From positions 496,001-560,000 of the forward strand of contig NZ_FMXT01000001.1 of NCBI RefSeq assembly GCF_900104335.1: DNA of 64,000 bases, written 5' to 3'. A program made the position numbers and the translations under genes. Shown piece after piece: positions 42,453 through 49,294 of this stretch (position 1 is its first letter; each line of letters begins with the position of its first letter). This stretch comes from Pseudobutyrivibrio sp. YE44 (GTDB taxonomy: Bacteria; Bacillota; Clostridia; Lachnospirales; Lachnospiraceae). The notes below the pieces were generated by a model, which saw nothing but the letters and a program-made list of their open reading frames with translations, was not told the DNA's origin and searched no databases.

Positions 42453-43778
42453 TTACCTCTCTTTTCCTATTATCGCGAGTACTAAATCTCGACCGTCTGA
42501 TTGTACAATACGAGTCTTTACTTGTAAAGCCGACTCAAGCTCAGACAAGGTTATATCATCAAGGAATACTTCCTCTTGTGCACGAAGCATTGTGCAGGAT
42601 AAAAGAAGATTATCTCCTAAATCCCTATCTTTCAGTTGGGCTATTAAATCCTGCCCTGTAATAAGTCCTGAAACTGTGATTTCCTCACCAAAGAAATCAT
42701 TAGTTATAGGAACAACTTCAACAGTTACCTTGTTAAACTTTTCAGTTATTAAATCACCAAGCTCCTTCATAAATGGAGCCGCAAGCTTTCCTGTTGCAAT
42801 GGTAACTTTTCTGCGTTTCATAAAGAAAGGCTTCTTTATATCTTCCAAAGCATCTAAAACCTCTTCCTTCAGAAGTCGAAGCATTCCAACACCATTTTCC
42901 AACTGGATAAATCCATCATATCTATCTGCCTCTGGAAGTGGACGTCCTGCAAGAATATACCATTCATCAGAAGCCTGAACGAAGTGGTTTCCAAACTTTT
43001 CCATAGCAATCTGCTGCCATTTTTCAATTTGATCAATTACAGCGCCAGCTTCTTCTGCTGTGTAGGTCCTAAGAGGAAATAATCCATCTCTATACTTTGT
43101 GATTCCCACGGGAACCACAGACATCGAACTCATAACCGGAGCGAACTGCATTAAATCCCCTATGGTTCTATCAAGCTCAGGCCCATCGTTTAAGCCCGGA
43201 CAGGAAACCACCTGGGCATTCATAGGAATCTCAGCCTCGTAAAGCTTTCGAATCTTTTCTAAAATATCTCCAGCAAAACGATTATGTAATAGCTTCATAC
43301 GAAGCTCTGGATTAGTTGCATGTACCGAAATATTAATAGGTCCAAGCTTATATGCAATAATTCTATCTAAATCCGCCATCTTCATATTTGTGAGGGTAAC
43401 ATAATTGCCCTGTAAAAACGAAAGACGGGTATCATCATCCTTAAAATAAAGAGTTTCTCTCATGCCAGGTGGCATCTGATCTATAAAGCAAAAGGCACAT
43501 TTGTTTGAACAGGATTTGTAATCATCCATAAGACCATTACAGAAAATTACGCCTAAATCCTCGCCATCCTCCTTTTTTACAAAAGTGGTGGAGGTGCTGC
43601 CATCCTCATGAAGAAGCTCTACAGTAATATCAGCGTCATCACTGTAATAGTGATAATCAAAAATATCTACAAGCTCAACATTATTTATCTTTGTAATTAT
43701 ATCTCCAGGAACAAGGCCCGCCAAATCAGCTGGGCTTCCCTCCATTATTTCCTTAATTTTATGACTTGAATTTAACAT
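42453..43778 (-). CDS. PDZ and radical-SAM-like DUF512 protein
   Basis: 441 residues: an N-terminal PDZ-like domain (1-75, GSPADLAGLVPGDIITKINNVEL), then a radical-SAM-like core with CSNKCAFCFIDQMPPGMR (CxxxCxxC at about 90-97), and the C-terminal DUF512 region (about 270-435, GNHFVQASDEWYILAGRPLPEADRYDGFIQLENGVGM). The enzyme reaction for this clostridial family is unknown. It sits directly upstream of der in many Clostridia, suggesting a translation or RNA role, which is inference. The ATG overlaps the yraN stop. Confidence 0.9.
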   Translation of the reverse strand: MLNSSHKIKEIMEGSPADLAGLVPGDIITKINNVELVDIFDYHYYSDDADITVELLHEDGSTSTTFVKKEDGEDLGVIFCNGLMDDYKSCSNKCAFCFIDQMPPGMRETLYFKDDDTRLSFLQGNYVTLTNMKMADLDRIIAYKLGPINISVHATNPELRMKLLHNRFAGDILEKIRKLYEAEIPMNAQVVSCPGLNDGPELDRTIGDLMQFAPVMSSMSVVPVGITKYRDGLFPLRTYTAEEAGAVIDQIEKWQQIAMEKFGNHFVQASDEWYILAGRPLPEADRYDGFIQLENGVGMLRLLKEEVLDALEDIKKPFFMKRRKVTIATGKLAAPFMKELGDLITEKFNKVTVEVVPITNDFFGEEITVSGLITGQDLIAQLKDRDLGDNLLLSCTMLRAQEEVFLDDITLSELESALQVKTRIVQSDGRDLVLAIIGKER

Positions 43779-44131
43779 ATTGGTATATACTCAAATGCAT
43801 TTTTAAAATGCGATAAATGTCCTTCCTCTATTGCTACAACATCAAACCTGACACTGGTGTCTGAGCTTACGTGATTCATCATCATATAAACATCAGCACA
43901 GCGAGAAATCTTTCTCTTTTTATTATAATTAACAGCCTCTACAGCAGAACCAGTCCTTTTGTTTTTGCGATATTTTACCTCAACAAAGACTAAGTAATCA
44001 CCATCTTTTCCAACAATATCAACCTCTCCCATTTTGCAGTAAAAGTTCTGCTTAAGGATTTTCATTCCATTGTTTTTGAGATAATCAGCTGCAAGCTGTT
44101 CAAAATCATTTCCTTGTTTTCTATAATTCAT
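43772..44131 (-). CDS. yraN: YraN-family (UPF0102) nuclease-like protein
   Basis: 119 residues with a restriction-nuclease-like core: GMKILKQNFYCKMGEVDIVGKDGDYLVFVEVKYRKNKRTGSA-type pattern, in which G-E-V-D and VEVKYR supply the E-D-ExK metal ligands. The family is a putative Holliday junction resolvase/endonuclease of unclear function. It lies 12 bp after the FlhB-like gene and overlaps the DUF512 gene by 7 bp. Confidence 0.92.
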   Translation of the reverse strand: MNYRKQGNDFEQLAADYLKNNGMKILKQNFYCKMGEVDIVGKDGDYLVFVEVKYRKNKRTGSAVEAVNYNKKRKISRCADVYMMMNHVSSDTSVRFDVVAIEEGHLSHFKNAFEYIPIC

Positions 44132-44143
44132 AAAATGTAAATC

Positions 44144-44434
44144 TTATCTTCCAAGCTTCGCCTTCAGCTTTTCCATATCATTAACGAAAACTAAAATCTC
44201 CGCTACAACCTCATAAAGCTCAGGTGGTATGGCATCTCCAATATTTAGCTTGCTCAAAGTCTCCGCCAGCTCATTGTCCTGATAAAAAGGGACATCAGCT
44301 TTCTTTGCTTCTTCTATAATTTGTTCTGCAACATATCCTTTTCCAGAAGCAAGAATTTTAGGCGCAGCATCCCCAGCCTCATAAGAAAGAGCAACCGCTG
44401 TTTTATTCTTATCAAAGCTTTTCTCTTCAGCCAT
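44144..44434 (-). CDS. FlhB C-terminal-domain homologue (YlqH/FlhX-like)
   Basis: 96 residues corresponding to the cytosolic C-terminal domain of FlhB/YscU export switches, without the membrane part. It has KTAVALSYEAGDAAPKILASGKGYVAEQIIEEAKKADVPFYQDNELAETL, where full FlhB has NPTHYAVAL and PxVxAKG. The NPTH autocleavage site is absent (DKNKTAVAL). FlhB C-terminal proteins interact with FliK-type rulers, and the gene directly upstream is FliK-like. The same pair (ylqG-ylqH) follows rnhB in Bacillus subtilis. Confidence 0.88.
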   Translation of the reverse strand: MAEEKSFDKNKTAVALSYEAGDAAPKILASGKGYVAEQIIEEAKKADVPFYQDNELAETLSKLNIGDAIPPELYEVVAEILVFVNDMEKLKAKLGR

Positions 44435-44447
44435 TACCTAGCCCTCA

Positions 44448-46319
44448 TTATGCTCTCATATCAAAGCTATATCTATGCACTAAGCCCTCATTAAGACCTT
44501 TACCTTCTATTGGAGGCGAACCTAAAAAATCCTCAACAAAATCTGCCTTATCCTCTCCACAGGTCAACTCAGAAGACACTGTAAAGCCCTTGGCTTCTAG
44601 GCGTTCAGTAAGTAAATCCAAGTTGTCCTCAATAAGCTTTAAGGAAGATTCATTTGCCAAATTCCATTTGCATCCAACCTTTGTTTCCTTGAGAGAAATA
44701 AACACGTCAGTTGGACCTAAATATTCCATATCAAAATGCAGGAATGCGGTAATTTCCTCACCAGCCTCATAGCTACTCTTTTTGTTTTGACGAACATAAA
44801 GCATACTGTCGGTGTTCTGGTTGTACATCTTCAGCGGAATCTGAACGAAATTGTACATCTCATTTGCAGAATTCATAAAGTTGATATTCTGCTTGATCTC
44901 ATTAGTTTGATTTTTAATCGCATCACTGGCTTTATTGTTAAAGCTAGATATCAATCGCTCTAAAGCCTCAGTCTGCTTAAGAACACGCTCATAAAGCTTT
45001 GAAATCTCACCTGGCTTCGTAACATCCTTCGGCTCCATAGTAAAGCTATCTGTAATAAGATTTTTAAGCAAACCTCTATAAAGCGGAGCCTTTATTATAT
45101 CATTTAATGTGGATTTTGGAATATCTGGATGATTTTCTAAGTAATCAGATATCTCTCTGAATACCTCTTTAATATTTGCATCAGTTTTTAGAGTTCCATC
45201 TTCCCCAAAAATCTCAAGATTATCTTTTGGGAAATCTGGAAGATTATTCAAAATCGCATTAAAGGAATTAATCTGCTTTTCACCAGCAAAGTTGTTTAGC
45301 ATCTGTATTCCAGATTCCTCAGTGGTGACAATTTGCTGGGCTGTTGTTTGGGCTGCCTGTCCTTCTGCTGCCTTGGAAGCCTCTGGATTAACTTGCAGTG
45401 CCTCAGCATTAGCCCCAATTTTATTTTGAGGATTAATATTATTAGATATCCCCTCAAAACCTTTGTTATTTAACTCTATACCATCAGCTTTGGTTGAAAA
45501 ATTTTCTGTAGGAACAACTTCCACCTTAGGCTGCTGATTAGTAGTTGCTTCAGCCTCTACATTTTCCTCTGTTAAAGTAACGTTACCCTCTGACGTCTGT
45601 TCAGTGACTTGCGATTCAAGATTTACAACACTTCCCTCTACAAAGATAGCCTTTAACTGACTATTGATATTTATAACATCGGAAGCCGTCAATTCCTCAG
45701 AAGTCATCAATTCTGGAAGCATATCGGCTATAACCTGAAAATTATCAGAAAGCACCGCTTTGTCATTAGCATAATTAGTAAACATACTAATGTTGTCAGG
45801 TGTAATGTCCAAACCATGCTTCGCCATTGTAACAAGTGTCTGAGGATCCACCTCAGGATTATTAAGGACAATTCTATGCATAGCTGCAAGATTCTCTGGA
45901 TTAATAGGCATTGAATTTTGCATCATGGAATTCACCATACTGATATTCTTTTCAGAAACAGAAATATTGGCTAAATCCAAAGCCTTTAGAAGTGTAGGAT
46001 TGGCTTCAAGTCCACCAAGATTAACTGGACGAATTTGAATTAAATTACCATCATTGCTTTTTACTTCAAAAAAAACAGACTGTCCAGGCACAAGATTAAC
46101 ACCAGAATCAAGGCGAGCAGTCATAGTCTGACCATTAGCCAGACCGATTGTCACCTTACCATTTTCAATGGAATTAACAGAACCCTCAAAGACTTCACCT
46201 TCCTTTAAGGTGTCAGCGGCGGTTCCAGTGAGGGACTGTGATGCTGCCATTTTTGTACGTGCTGCAGCATCATTAATCATTCCTCCATTGTATGGATTGA
46301 AACCTGTGTTAATATTCAT
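44448..46319 (-). CDS. FliK-like hook-length-control family protein (YlqG-like position)
   Basis: About 623 residues from the ATG at 46319 (GGAGAG upstream; the longer frame to 46367 lacks a site). A Gly/Asn-rich N-terminus and a small beta domain (residues about 40-105, EGEVFEGSVNSIENGKVTIGLANG) precede a long helical and Gln/Thr/Ala-rich middle. The C-terminal domain (about 515-600: QIPLKMYNQNTDSMLYVRQNKK, FLHFDMEYLGPTDVFISLKETKVGCKWNL) resembles the FliK C-terminal fold. Paired with the FlhB-like gene. No flagellar genes are nearby, so a flagellar role is unproven. Confidence 0.78.
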   Translation of the reverse strand: MNINTGFNPYNGGMINDAAARTKMAASQSLTGTAADTLKEGEVFEGSVNSIENGKVTIGLANGQTMTARLDSGVNLVPGQSVFFEVKSNDGNLIQIRPVNLGGLEANPTLLKALDLANISVSEKNISMVNSMMQNSMPINPENLAAMHRIVLNNPEVDPQTLVTMAKHGLDITPDNISMFTNYANDKAVLSDNFQVIADMLPELMTSEELTASDVININSQLKAIFVEGSVVNLESQVTEQTSEGNVTLTEENVEAEATTNQQPKVEVVPTENFSTKADGIELNNKGFEGISNNINPQNKIGANAEALQVNPEASKAAEGQAAQTTAQQIVTTEESGIQMLNNFAGEKQINSFNAILNNLPDFPKDNLEIFGEDGTLKTDANIKEVFREISDYLENHPDIPKSTLNDIIKAPLYRGLLKNLITDSFTMEPKDVTKPGEISKLYERVLKQTEALERLISSFNNKASDAIKNQTNEIKQNINFMNSANEMYNFVQIPLKMYNQNTDSMLYVRQNKKSSYEAGEEITAFLHFDMEYLGPTDVFISLKETKVGCKWNLANESSLKLIEDNLDLLTERLEAKGFTVSSELTCGEDKADFVEDFLGSPPIEGKGLNEGLVHRYSFDMRA

Positions 46320-46378: not shown

Positions 46379-47143
46379 TTAAACAAAGTTACCGATAAAA
46401 GATTTTCTATGAATAGGACAAGGTCCATATTTTTTAAGAGCCTCAATATGTTCAGAAGAACCATAGCCCTTATTACTTGCAAAATGATACTCAGGATAAA
46501 TATCGTCATATTCAACCATCATTTTATCTCTTGTAACCTTTGCAATAATACTTGCAGCACCTATAGATATAGACTTTGCGTCACCTTTAATAATTGGAAC
46601 CTGAGGAATTGTTACTCCAGGAATTGTAACAGCATCGTTCAAAAGAAGCTGTGGCTCTACACTACCCAAGGAGATGGCCTGACGCATAGCTTCGTAAGTG
46701 GCCTGAAGTATATTAATCTCATCAATACGCTCCTCAGAAACCACTCCAATGCCTACCGAAATAGCCTTAGCCATTATTTCCTCGTAAAGCTCCTCACGTT
46801 TAGCTGCTGAAAGCTTCTTAGAATCATTGATGTATAAAATATCACAGTCCTTTGGGAGGATAACACAAGCTGTTACAACCGGGCCAGCCAAAGGGCCACG
46901 GCCAACCTCATCAATACCACCTACATACTCATATTTTTCCCAATACTGGTATTCATATTCTTTGAGCCGTTCGATACGCTCTTTTTCAATTCTCAGCTTC
47001 TCCATTTTCTTTTGAGCCTGACCAATGATTTTAGACACCCCTGGTCTTCCGTCATTGATATATTCCTCTATAAAAGATGGAAGAAGTTCGATTGATGATT
47101 CCTTGAATTCCTTTTGAATATCGGTAATTTTCTTTTCGCCCAT
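46379..47143 (-). CDS. rnhB: Ribonuclease HII
   Basis: Removes ribonucleotides and RNA from RNA-DNA hybrids. 254 residues from the ATG at 47143; a TTG four codons earlier would overlap lepB by 8 bp. An N-terminal helical extension (about 1-75) of the Firmicutes type is followed by the catalytic domain with GIDEVGRGPLAGPVVTA (Asp-Glu metal ligands), NDSKKLSAAKRE and AKVTRD near 205. It lies between lepB and the FliK-like gene. Confidence 0.96.
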   Translation of the reverse strand: MGEKKITDIQKEFKESSIELLPSFIEEYINDGRPGVSKIIGQAQKKMEKLRIEKERIERLKEYEYQYWEKYEYVGGIDEVGRGPLAGPVVTACVILPKDCDILYINDSKKLSAAKREELYEEIMAKAISVGIGVVSEERIDEINILQATYEAMRQAISLGSVEPQLLLNDAVTIPGVTIPQVPIIKGDAKSISIGAASIIAKVTRDKMMVEYDDIYPEYHFASNKGYGSSEHIEALKKYGPCPIHRKSFIGNFV

Positions 47144-47147
47144 AACA

Positions 47148-47849
47148 CTAGTCAATATTGTCTACAAGGCCAAATTTAGAGAAAGGATATACTCTTACCC
47201 AAGCCTTACCAACAATGTCATCTCCCTTTATATTTCCAACAGCTTCAAATCTTGAATCTGTACTGTTGTTTCTGTTATCACCAAGAACAAAGAATTCATC
47301 TTCGCCAAGATAAATCTCTGTGCTAGCTATACCTGCATTACGAATAACCTCAGTACCATATTCCTCTGGTAAAAGTTCATCATTTACATAAATATTTCCA
47401 GAAGCATCAATTCTAACAGTTTCTCCAGGAAGACCTATCACTCTTTTTATATAATAGGTGTTTTCCTCGTATTTATATGGAAATACAACAACATCAAAAC
47501 GTTCAGGGTCATGTATACGATAGCTAATTTTATCTACAATTAGATTATCACCATCTGAAAGAGTATCCTCCATGGAGCTTCCACTAACCACAGTACGCTG
47601 ACCAATAAACTGTGTGATAACAAATACTATTAAAAAGCACACAGCAACATTAATAACAACGCTGAGAATCTCTCTTAATATCCCCTTAGTAGTAAGAGGC
47701 TCATCTTCTTCAAAAACCTCACCATTTTCCTTGGCACGAGTCTTTTCATTATCTTTTGATTTAGAAGGACTATCATTTACTCTCTGTCTAGCTTTTTCAA
47801 TATCCTTTTTAATCTGTTCTTCATCATTAAAGTCGATTACGTTCATCAT
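47148..47849 (-). CDS. lepB: Type I signal peptidase (first copy)
   Basis: 233 residues. A charged cytosolic N-terminus of about 65 residues precedes one membrane anchor (about 68-90) and the extracytoplasmic catalytic domain. The catalytic Ser is in VVSGSSMEDTL and Lys in YYIKRVIGLPGE; the GDNRNNSTDSR box is present. Start ATG overlaps the rbgA stop (TAATG). A second signal peptidase lies on the other side of rbgA; both have complete Ser-Lys dyads. Confidence 0.95.
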   Translation of the reverse strand: MMNVIDFNDEEQIKKDIEKARQRVNDSPSKSKDNEKTRAKENGEVFEEDEPLTTKGILREILSVVINVAVCFLIVFVITQFIGQRTVVSGSSMEDTLSDGDNLIVDKISYRIHDPERFDVVVFPYKYEENTYYIKRVIGLPGETVRIDASGNIYVNDELLPEEYGTEVIRNAGIASTEIYLGEDEFFVLGDNRNNSTDSRFEAVGNIKGDDIVGKAWVRVYPFSKFGLVDNID

Positions 47850-48697: not shown

Positions 48698-49294
48698 CTA
48701 AAATGGATATCTCATCCATACTTTTCCTAAAATATCTTCACTGGCAACAAAACCAACACTTTCATATCTTGAATCCTCAGAAGAATTTCGGTTATCTCCA
48801 AGTACAAAGTACTGATCCTCCATTAATTCAACTGGAGAAGCAGCGATACCAGGATTTTCTATACGTTCTACCTCAAGATTCTCTTTGTACAGTTCATCAT
48901 TAATATAAATGCGACCGTTATTAATATAAATAGTGTCACCTGGCAAACCAATAATTCTTTTAACACTATAGCTGGCATTAACATTAGATTTTGGTTTGAA
49001 GGCTATAACATCCCCTGTGCTTGGTTTAGAAAGCTTATAAGCCACTGTATTAATAAGCAGTTTGTCAGAAGTCTGATAGGTTGGCTCCATAGAAGCATTG
49101 GAACACTCCACCTGCTTTCCAAAAGCTAAAACAATACCATAAGCTAACAGGATAACTGCTGCCAACTGAAGTGCAAATATACCAACATATTTAGCTTTAT
49201 CAAAATCAAATTTTCTACGTCTACGACGGAAATTTAAACCATCTTTTCTCTTACCAAATTTTTTGTTAAATATCTCTTTTATTGAAAAAAACAT
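48698..49294 (-). CDS. lepB: Type I signal peptidase (second copy)
   Basis: 198 residues. A basic N-terminus with RRRRKFDFDK precedes one anchor (about 38-58). The catalytic Ser is in CSNASMEPTY and Lys in YSVKRIIGLPGDT; GDNRNSSEDSR box and C-terminal GKVWMRYPF. It is shorter than the copy after rbgA, with a much shorter cytosolic tail and a Cys just before the Ser motif. First gene of the lepB-rbgA-lepB-rnhB run, after the rplS terminator. Confidence 0.95.
   Translation of the reverse strand: MFFSIKEIFNKKFGKRKDGLNFRRRRRKFDFDKAKYVGIFALQLAAVILLAYGIVLAFGKQVECSNASMEPTYQTSDKLLINTVAYKLSKPSTGDVIAFKPKSNVNASYSVKRIIGLPGDTIYINNGRIYINDELYKENLEVERIENPGIAASPVELMEDQYFVLGDNRNSSEDSRYESVGFVASEDILGKVWMRYPF

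What the first reader, a model, noticed from the sequence alone, without database searches (positions are those of the whole stretch)
44144..46319. Orphan FliK-like and FlhB-C-terminal-like pair in a housekeeping operon
The two proteins that set hook length in flagellar export occur together between rnhB and yraN with no other flagellar genes, and the FlhB piece lacks the membrane domain and the NPTH autocleavage motif. The same rbgA-rnhB-ylqG-ylqH order occurs in Bacillus subtilis, so the pair is anciently conserved here without a known role.
Basis: partly seen in the sequence, partly recalled or inferred. Interest (0 to 1): 0.5.

Follow-up and report, generated by a model that had tools for sequence, protein, structure and literature searches.

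The report
Second flagellar switch pair, FliK2–FlhX
Two genes that look out of place among housekeeping genes encode what seems to be a spare copy of the parts that tell a bacterial flagellum when to stop building its hook; in the genomes sampled the pair occurs only with flagellar genes, so it is probably an accessory part of the flagellum.

Summary
In detail: a 96-aa FlhB-C-terminal-like protein (FlhX type) and a 623-aa FliK-like protein (here called FliK2) lie between rnhB and yraN, without NPTH or membrane domain. The reading "no known role" is mostly wrong. The genome has a large fla/che cluster about 45 kb away with its own FlhB and FliK. In 293 class genomes FlhX occurs in 94 of 119 flagellated and 0 of 174 others; in 249 phylum genomes it was never seen without FlhB (152 of 206, 4 more unclear). 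In almost every locus examined FliK2 precedes FlhX, while the neighbours vary: rnhB-yraN, rnhB-sucC (Bacillus), ccm genes (Pseudomonas aeruginosa), a flagellin gene, or unrelated genes. FlhX groups apart from FlhB, and 63 of 63 lack one residue that 28 of 28 FlhB keep. FliK2 ends in a conserved hydrophobic-[D/N]-x-[K/R]-hydrophobic tail, like the FliK tail that a 2026 paper proposes acts on FlhB's cleaved domain. Most likely it is a second, pre-cleaved copy of the flagellar specificity switch. FlhX itself is known (H. pylori "spare part"), and a P. putida pair is reported as FleQ-activated. Added here: the quantified linkage, the pairing across phyla and the tail. Structure prediction failed, then was closed.

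The parts
44144..44434 (-). flhX (ylqH type): free-standing FlhB C-terminal domain, 96 aa, begins where FlhB strand b2 begins; lacks membrane domain, strand b1 and NPTH
44448..46319 (-). fliK2 (ylqG type; 'FliK2' is my label): FliK-like protein, 623 aa; N-terminal OB/TOBE-like domain, region weakly like DUF6240, C-terminal Flg_hook (T3S4) domain, terminal pentapeptide FDMRA
44448..44465 (-). codons of the conserved C-terminal tail F-D-M-R-A plus stop
   Evidence: sequence
44435..44447 (-). 13-base gap between fliK2 stop and flhX start (4-base gene overlap in B. velezensis and P. aeruginosa)
46379..47155 (-). rnhB, upstream neighbour (context only)
43772..44131 (-). yraN/UPF0102, downstream neighbour (context only)

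Best explanation
The pair is an accessory module of the flagellar type III export apparatus: a second copy of the FliK-FlhB specificity switch in which the FlhB half (FlhX) is born already 'cleaved'. [quoted passage not shown] FliK2 would act on it through its T3S4 domain and terminal pentapeptide, as FliK acts on FlhB. Shown here: homology, occurrence only with flagellar genes in the samples, pairing, grouping of FlhX apart from FlhB, conserved tail. Inferred: docking on the gate, FliK2-FlhX binding, effect on hook length or substrate switching. The housekeeping operon is taken to be only its address.
For: (1) Class sample, 293 genomes: FlhX in 94 of 119 flagellated and 0 of 174 others (Fisher p 9e-54, relatedness ignored). 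Phylum sample, 249 genomes: 206 have a FlhB-type match; 152 have FlhX together with FlhB (in G314, G356, G416 and G467 only an incomplete FlhB was seen), 50 have FlhB alone, 4 of one family (f82) are unclear, 43 have neither. (2) In the window's family, G218 and G230 lack FlhX, FlhB, Flg_hook, FlhA and flagellin alike. (3) A FliK2 precedes FlhX in the 30 best-scoring class loci (30 of 30), 79 of 80 close relatives, 18 of 20 divergent class loci (16 by profile, 2 by place and tail only) and 20 of 20 phylum loci (16 by profile, 4 by place and tail only); also in P. aeruginosa (Flg_hook 67.4 bits), B. velezensis (by place and tail) and Acetoanaerobium, where a flagellin gene follows. (4) All 25 FlhX-less flagellated class genomes have exactly one Flg_hook protein; 74 of 94 FlhX-bearing ones have two or more. 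(5) Tail: D/N at -4 in 51 of 51 genomes, two of which were recognised by the tail itself, and in 19 of 19 readable phylum loci. PMC13344023 (abstract and section 14 read) proposes that the last five residues of FliK act on FlhB-CCD. (6) P. [quoted passage not shown] (7) HP1575 'spare part' (Wand 2006, title only, in reference lists).
Against: Twenty-five of 119 flagellated class genomes and 50 of 206 phylum genomes do without FlhX, so it is not essential. No interaction, secretion or phenotype was tested. G196 and G189 (the latter in the window's own family) have FlhX without a FliK2 beside it. G060 has FlhX, flagellin and main FliK, but neither FlhA nor FlhB was found; I took this as an assembly gap, though loss is not excluded. 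Pfam does not find Flg_hook in the B. velezensis FliK2. One main FliK (B. velezensis) lacks the tail. No SigD-type site was found in the window (exact pattern), so co-regulation with flagella in this organism is not shown. The N-terminal domain of FliK2 is OB/S1-like, not a known hook ruler.
Confidence: 0.72

Rival explanations
1. A housekeeping factor of ribosome or RNA metabolism that borrowed flagellar domains; FliK2's OB/S1-like domain binds RNA and the rbgA-rnhB operon reflects function.
For: Position beside rbgA/rnhB in many Bacillota; weak similarity of the FliK2 N-domain to RRP5 and TOBE domains.
Against: FlhX absent from all 174 non-flagellated class genomes and from the 43 phylum genomes without FlhB; the pair sits elsewhere in many lineages; FleQ-activated in P. 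putida.
Confidence: 0.05
2. A passive 'spare part': FlhX simply backs up a damaged or missing FlhB C-terminal domain, and FliK2 is a redundant second hook-length ruler of the same kind as FliK.
For: H. pylori HP1575 (title only); FlhX corresponds to the FlhB-CC fragment; FliK2 has a T3S4 domain and tail.
Against: FlhX-specific features (one residue missing in 63 of 63), a distinct FliK2 tail (K/R at -2 in 44 of 51 against 2 of 22 main FliK) and a different N-domain suggest a specialised job.
Confidence: 0.18
3. The pair controls a non-flagellar export activity of the flagellar gate, such as secretion of other proteins.
For: It occurs only with FlhB yet is often encoded away from flagellar genes.
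Against: No candidate substrate; I did not search systematically for linked secreted proteins.
Confidence: 0.05

Closest known systems
FlhX / HP1575-type FlhB C-terminal homologues (NCBIfam TIGR00789; YlqH of B. subtilis, name recalled)
   Same: Free-standing FlhB-CC, no membrane domain, no NPTH; same operon place in B. velezensis; the tree places the B. velezensis and P. aeruginosa proteins with it apart from FlhB.
   Different: Scores 104.1 bits on TIGR00789, below its 117.35 cut-off; 0 of 293 class genomes and 1 of 249 phylum genomes have a match over it.
FlhB (and needle SctU)
   Same: C-terminal globular domain, shared G, P and Y positions.
   Different: No transmembrane part, no b1 strand, no NPTH; one residue (Y, H or F in FlhB) missing in all 63 FlhX.
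FliK
   Same: Flg_hook/T3S4 domain over the Pfam cut-off; C-terminal hydrophobic-[D/N]-x-x-[A or aliphatic] tail.
   Different: OB/TOBE-like N-domain, basic residue at -2, separate branch of the T3S4 tree (90/92, not decisive), encoded outside the fla/che cluster here.
P. putida PP4328-4329 and Campylobacterota flhX-fliK
   Same: FliK homolog and FlhB-domain protein encoded together (PMC5026340; PMC9321776; passages only).
   Different: No mechanism in the passages seen; sequences of these loci were not compared here (P. aeruginosa was).

Membership tests
Pfam PF01312 Bac_export_2 (FlhB superfamily) | profile match over curated cut-off | tested here: met
   69.8 bits against 24.4, C-terminal part only
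FlhB proper | N-terminal transmembrane domain | tested here: not met
   96 aa, matches positions 261-335 only
FlhB proper | NPTH autocleavage motif | tested here: not met
   absent from the window protein and from 63 of 63 FlhX
TIGR00789 flhB_rel | score over curated cut-off 117.35 | tested here: not met
   104.1 bits; not filed under this model
FlhX group (descriptive) | groups with other free-standing FlhB-CC proteins apart from FlhB | tested here: met
   63 FlhX against 28 FlhB, support 98/89; few columns and long branches
FliK | Flg_hook (T3S4) domain over cut-off | tested here: met
   34.9 bits against 29.8
FliK | C-terminal switch tail | tested here: met
   FDMRA; D/N at -4 in 51 of 51 FliK2 and 20 of 22 main FliK
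FliK | secreted ruler that sets hook length | not testable with these tools
   needs genetics and electron microscopy
FliK | binding to an FlhB C-terminal domain | not testable with these tools

The most novel reading that the evidence does not exclude
The pair is a reset switch. If ejection of FlhB's cleaved domain turns the export gate irreversibly to filament mode (PMC13344023), then FlhX, which lacks strand b1 and is never tethered, could refill the empty site and return the gate to hook/rod mode, with FliK2's tail pairing with FlhX where FlhB strand b1 would sit and later removing it. FliK-family tails (hydrophobic-D-x-x-A) would then work by mimicking FlhB strand b1 (A-D-V-V-I). This would let old basal bodies be re-used or repaired. 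The similarity of tail and strand is short and was not tested against chance.
Probability: 0.12. Interest if true: 0.65.

Novelty: new member of a known kind. Interest (0 to 1): 0.36.

Why it matters
How the flagellar export gate changes substrates is a long-standing question. A natural, pre-cleaved FlhB domain with its own FliK partner, kept in widely different bacteria and seen only where flagellar genes exist, is a ready tool for taking that switch apart in a laboratory organism such as B. subtilis. It also argues that 'FlhB-like' and 'FliK' genes outside flagellar clusters should be annotated as one flagellar module.

Tried and rejected
Considered and rejected: random resemblance (both partners over Pfam cut-offs); a truncated FlhB pseudogene (a separate group with its own one-residue deletion); FlhX in non-motile Clostridia (none in 174 class genomes; the two weak hits G025 and G243, E 5e-4 and 8e-4 with PF01312, were not found with TIGR00789 or Flg_hook, and both lack FlhA and flagellin).

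Led nowhere: SigD-type promoter search (0 exact matches); solved-structure search with the FliK2 C-terminus (one chance-level hit). Literature: ylqH is named in 6 papers, of which I opened one, PMC9235176 (passages), which lists it as a type III secretion gene in Aliarcobacter; FlhB with ylqG gave 0 papers; a Bdellovibrio FlhB search gave 0.

Mended on checking: from the tables I first counted 95 FlhX genomes in the class; one search shows that G028's second match is a 28-residue fragment on another contig, probably the rest of a split FlhB, so the count is 94 of 119. In the phylum sample, 4 genomes of family f82 have second matches in open frames of 197-461 residues and are set aside as unclear. 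In one search a faulty filter kept one FlhB row and only 17; one search used all 28, with the same grouping.

Limits: the loci examined for pairing were mostly the best-scoring ones, not a random draw. Of the 20 FlhX genomes with a single Pfam Flg_hook hit, 18 were fetched (16 have a FliK2 beside FlhX) and 2 (G068, G271) were not. The profile used to find FliK2 was built with the tail included. Fisher tests ignore relatedness. The tail/strand resemblance of the novel case was only looked at by eye.

Full report
What is there. On the minus strand between rnhB and yraN lie a 623-aa FliK-like gene (FliK2, my label; 44448-46319 from its ATG) and, 13 bases later, a 96-aa gene matching only the last quarter of FlhB (FlhX, 44144-44434). 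FlhX aligns with FlhB from just behind the NPTH cleavage site. According to the FlhB crystal-structure paper PMC3640470 (passages), NPTH lies between strands b1 and b2 of a four-stranded sheet, so FlhX corresponds to the cleaved fragment without strand b1. The closest named relatives of the window's FlhX are from Pseudobutyrivibrio. In its own genome 23 of 28 B. velezensis fla/che proteins have hits at 586.9-619.3 kb on the same contig, about 45 kb from the pair (540.1-542.3 kb); that cluster holds a full-length FlhB and a separate FliK.

Does it follow flagella? In an even sample of 293 class genomes, 119 have flagellar genes (FlhB, or main FliK and flagellin); 94 of these have FlhX, against 0 of 174 others. 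A short second match was printed for 91 of the 94 and for the other three (G068, G231, G271). Two genomes showed FlhX without FlhB. G107 has part of FlhA, flagellin and main FliK. G060 has flagellin and main FliK, but no FlhA or FlhB was found; I count it as an incomplete assembly. In 249 phylum genomes, 206 have a FlhB-type match: 152 have FlhX together with FlhB (in G314, G356, G416 and G467 only an incomplete FlhB was seen), 50 have full-length FlhB alone, 4 of family f82 are unclear, and 43 genomes have neither. The two samples share at least ten genomes. In the window's family, G218 and G230 lack both partners, FlhB, FlhA and flagellin together. The link is one-way: 25 of 119 flagellated class genomes lack FlhX.

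Is it a pair? The 25 FlhX-less flagellated class genomes have one Flg_hook protein each; 74 of the 94 FlhX-bearing ones have two or more. Of the 20 apparent exceptions I fetched 18, and 16 carry a FliK2 beside FlhX that the Pfam search did not list; G196 and G189 do not. FliK2 precedes FlhX in 30 of 30 best-scoring class loci, in 79 of 80 close relatives, most of them titled as Lachnospiraceae, and in 20 of 20 phylum loci, by profile in 16 and by place and tail only in 4. Among the 80 close relatives rnhB is seen in 72 and yraN in 76; some of the contigs are short.

The address changes, the pair mostly does not. B. velezensis has rbgA-rnhB-fliK2-flhX-sucC, with its fla/che genes starting 11 kb on; Pfam finds no Flg_hook in that FliK2, so it rests on place and tail. 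P. aeruginosa has the pair divergent from ccm genes, with a clear Flg_hook domain. Acetoanaerobium has a flagellin gene directly after it. Several clostridial genomes with a fused FliR-FlhB-length protein have it next to a metallophosphoesterase gene (two of these genes checked with Pfam). Others have it among unrelated genes. PMC9321776 mentions flhX-fliK outside the main cluster in Nitratiruptor, and PMC5026340 reports a P. putida operon of a FliK homolog and an FlhB-domain protein activated 1.8-fold by FleQ. Passages only were read from both.

Features of the two proteins. FlhX forms one side of a branch against FlhB from Clostridia, Bacillus, Actinobacteria and Proteobacteria (63 against 28 rows, support 98/89; few columns, long branches), and 63 of 63 lack one residue that 28 of 28 FlhB keep (24 Y, 3 H, 1 F). 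FliK2 ends in a short tail: hydrophobic, then D or N (51 of 51 genomes, two of them recognised by the tail itself), any residue, K or R (44 of 51), then V, I, A or L. In the 19 readable phylum loci, not part of the 51, D/N stands at -4 in 19 and K/R at -2 in 16. Main FliK has the same frame (D/N 20 of 22, final A 18 of 22) but K/R at -2 in only 2 of 22 (Fisher 4e-10). Among the close relatives F-D stands at -5/-4 in 77 of 78 readable upstream ORFs, the odd one being an unrelated ORF, and the full F-D-x-[K/R]-A in 72. Conservation falls off before the tail (entropy 0.7-2.6 bits at the last five positions against 2.9-3.7 for the twenty before). The N-terminus of FliK2 resembles OB/TOBE domains (TOBE in 24 of 54 members), followed by a region weakly like DUF6240 (17 of 54).

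How it probably works. In PMC13344023 (abstract and section 14 read) the cleaved FlhB domain holds the gate in early mode, and the last five residues of FliK are proposed to remove it. FlhX is that domain without the need for cleavage, and FliK2 carries the same kind of tail. I therefore read the pair as a second, pre-cleaved copy of the specificity switch. FlhX was not found in that paper's main text. H. pylori HP1575 is titled a 'spare part' for a deleted FlhB-CC domain (Wand 2006; only the title was seen, in reference lists; the paper is not held). Docking, binding and phenotype are inferred.

Verdict. A real, widespread, flagellum-associated two-gene module whose FlhX half is known. New here, as far as the searches in one open-access library show, are the quantified one-way linkage, the pairing across phyla and the FliK2-specific tail. 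Interest moderate.

Noticed in passing
L176 4280-5983 (B. velezensis NZ_CP083716.1): The FliK2 (YlqG-type) protein is annotated 'glycosyl transferase'; Pfam finds no glycosyltransferase in it, so this is a likely misannotation; its tail is VDVKI.
   Followed up: partly
L181 12161-13501 (B. velezensis main FliK): The fla/che FliK of this Bacillus (Flg_hook at 326-402) lacks the hydrophobic-D-x-x-A tail (ends EMEEE), while its FliK2 has the tail; in Bacillus the tail may sit only on FliK2 (one sequence).
   Followed up: no
G016, G017, G043, G157 (class sample): Three PF01312 matches, apparently FlhB plus two FlhX copies, in genomes of families f20 and f21.
   Followed up: no
G300, G338, G370, G442 (family f82, phylum sample): Two TIGR00789 matches in unusually long open frames (589-785 and 197-461 residues); may be fused FlhB and an extended FlhX.
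   Followed up: no
L148 (G196): flhX follows rnhB directly with no fliK2, in a family where another genome (G118) has no FlhX; possibly FliK2 is lost first.
   Followed up: no
window 47148-47849 and 48698-49294: Two signal peptidase I genes (Pfam Peptidase_S26) flank rbgA in the window.
   Followed up: partly
FliK2 residues 114-188 (window about 45756-45980, minus strand): This region of FliK2 weakly matches DUF6240 (17 of 54 members), which may be a FliK2-related family.
   Followed up: no
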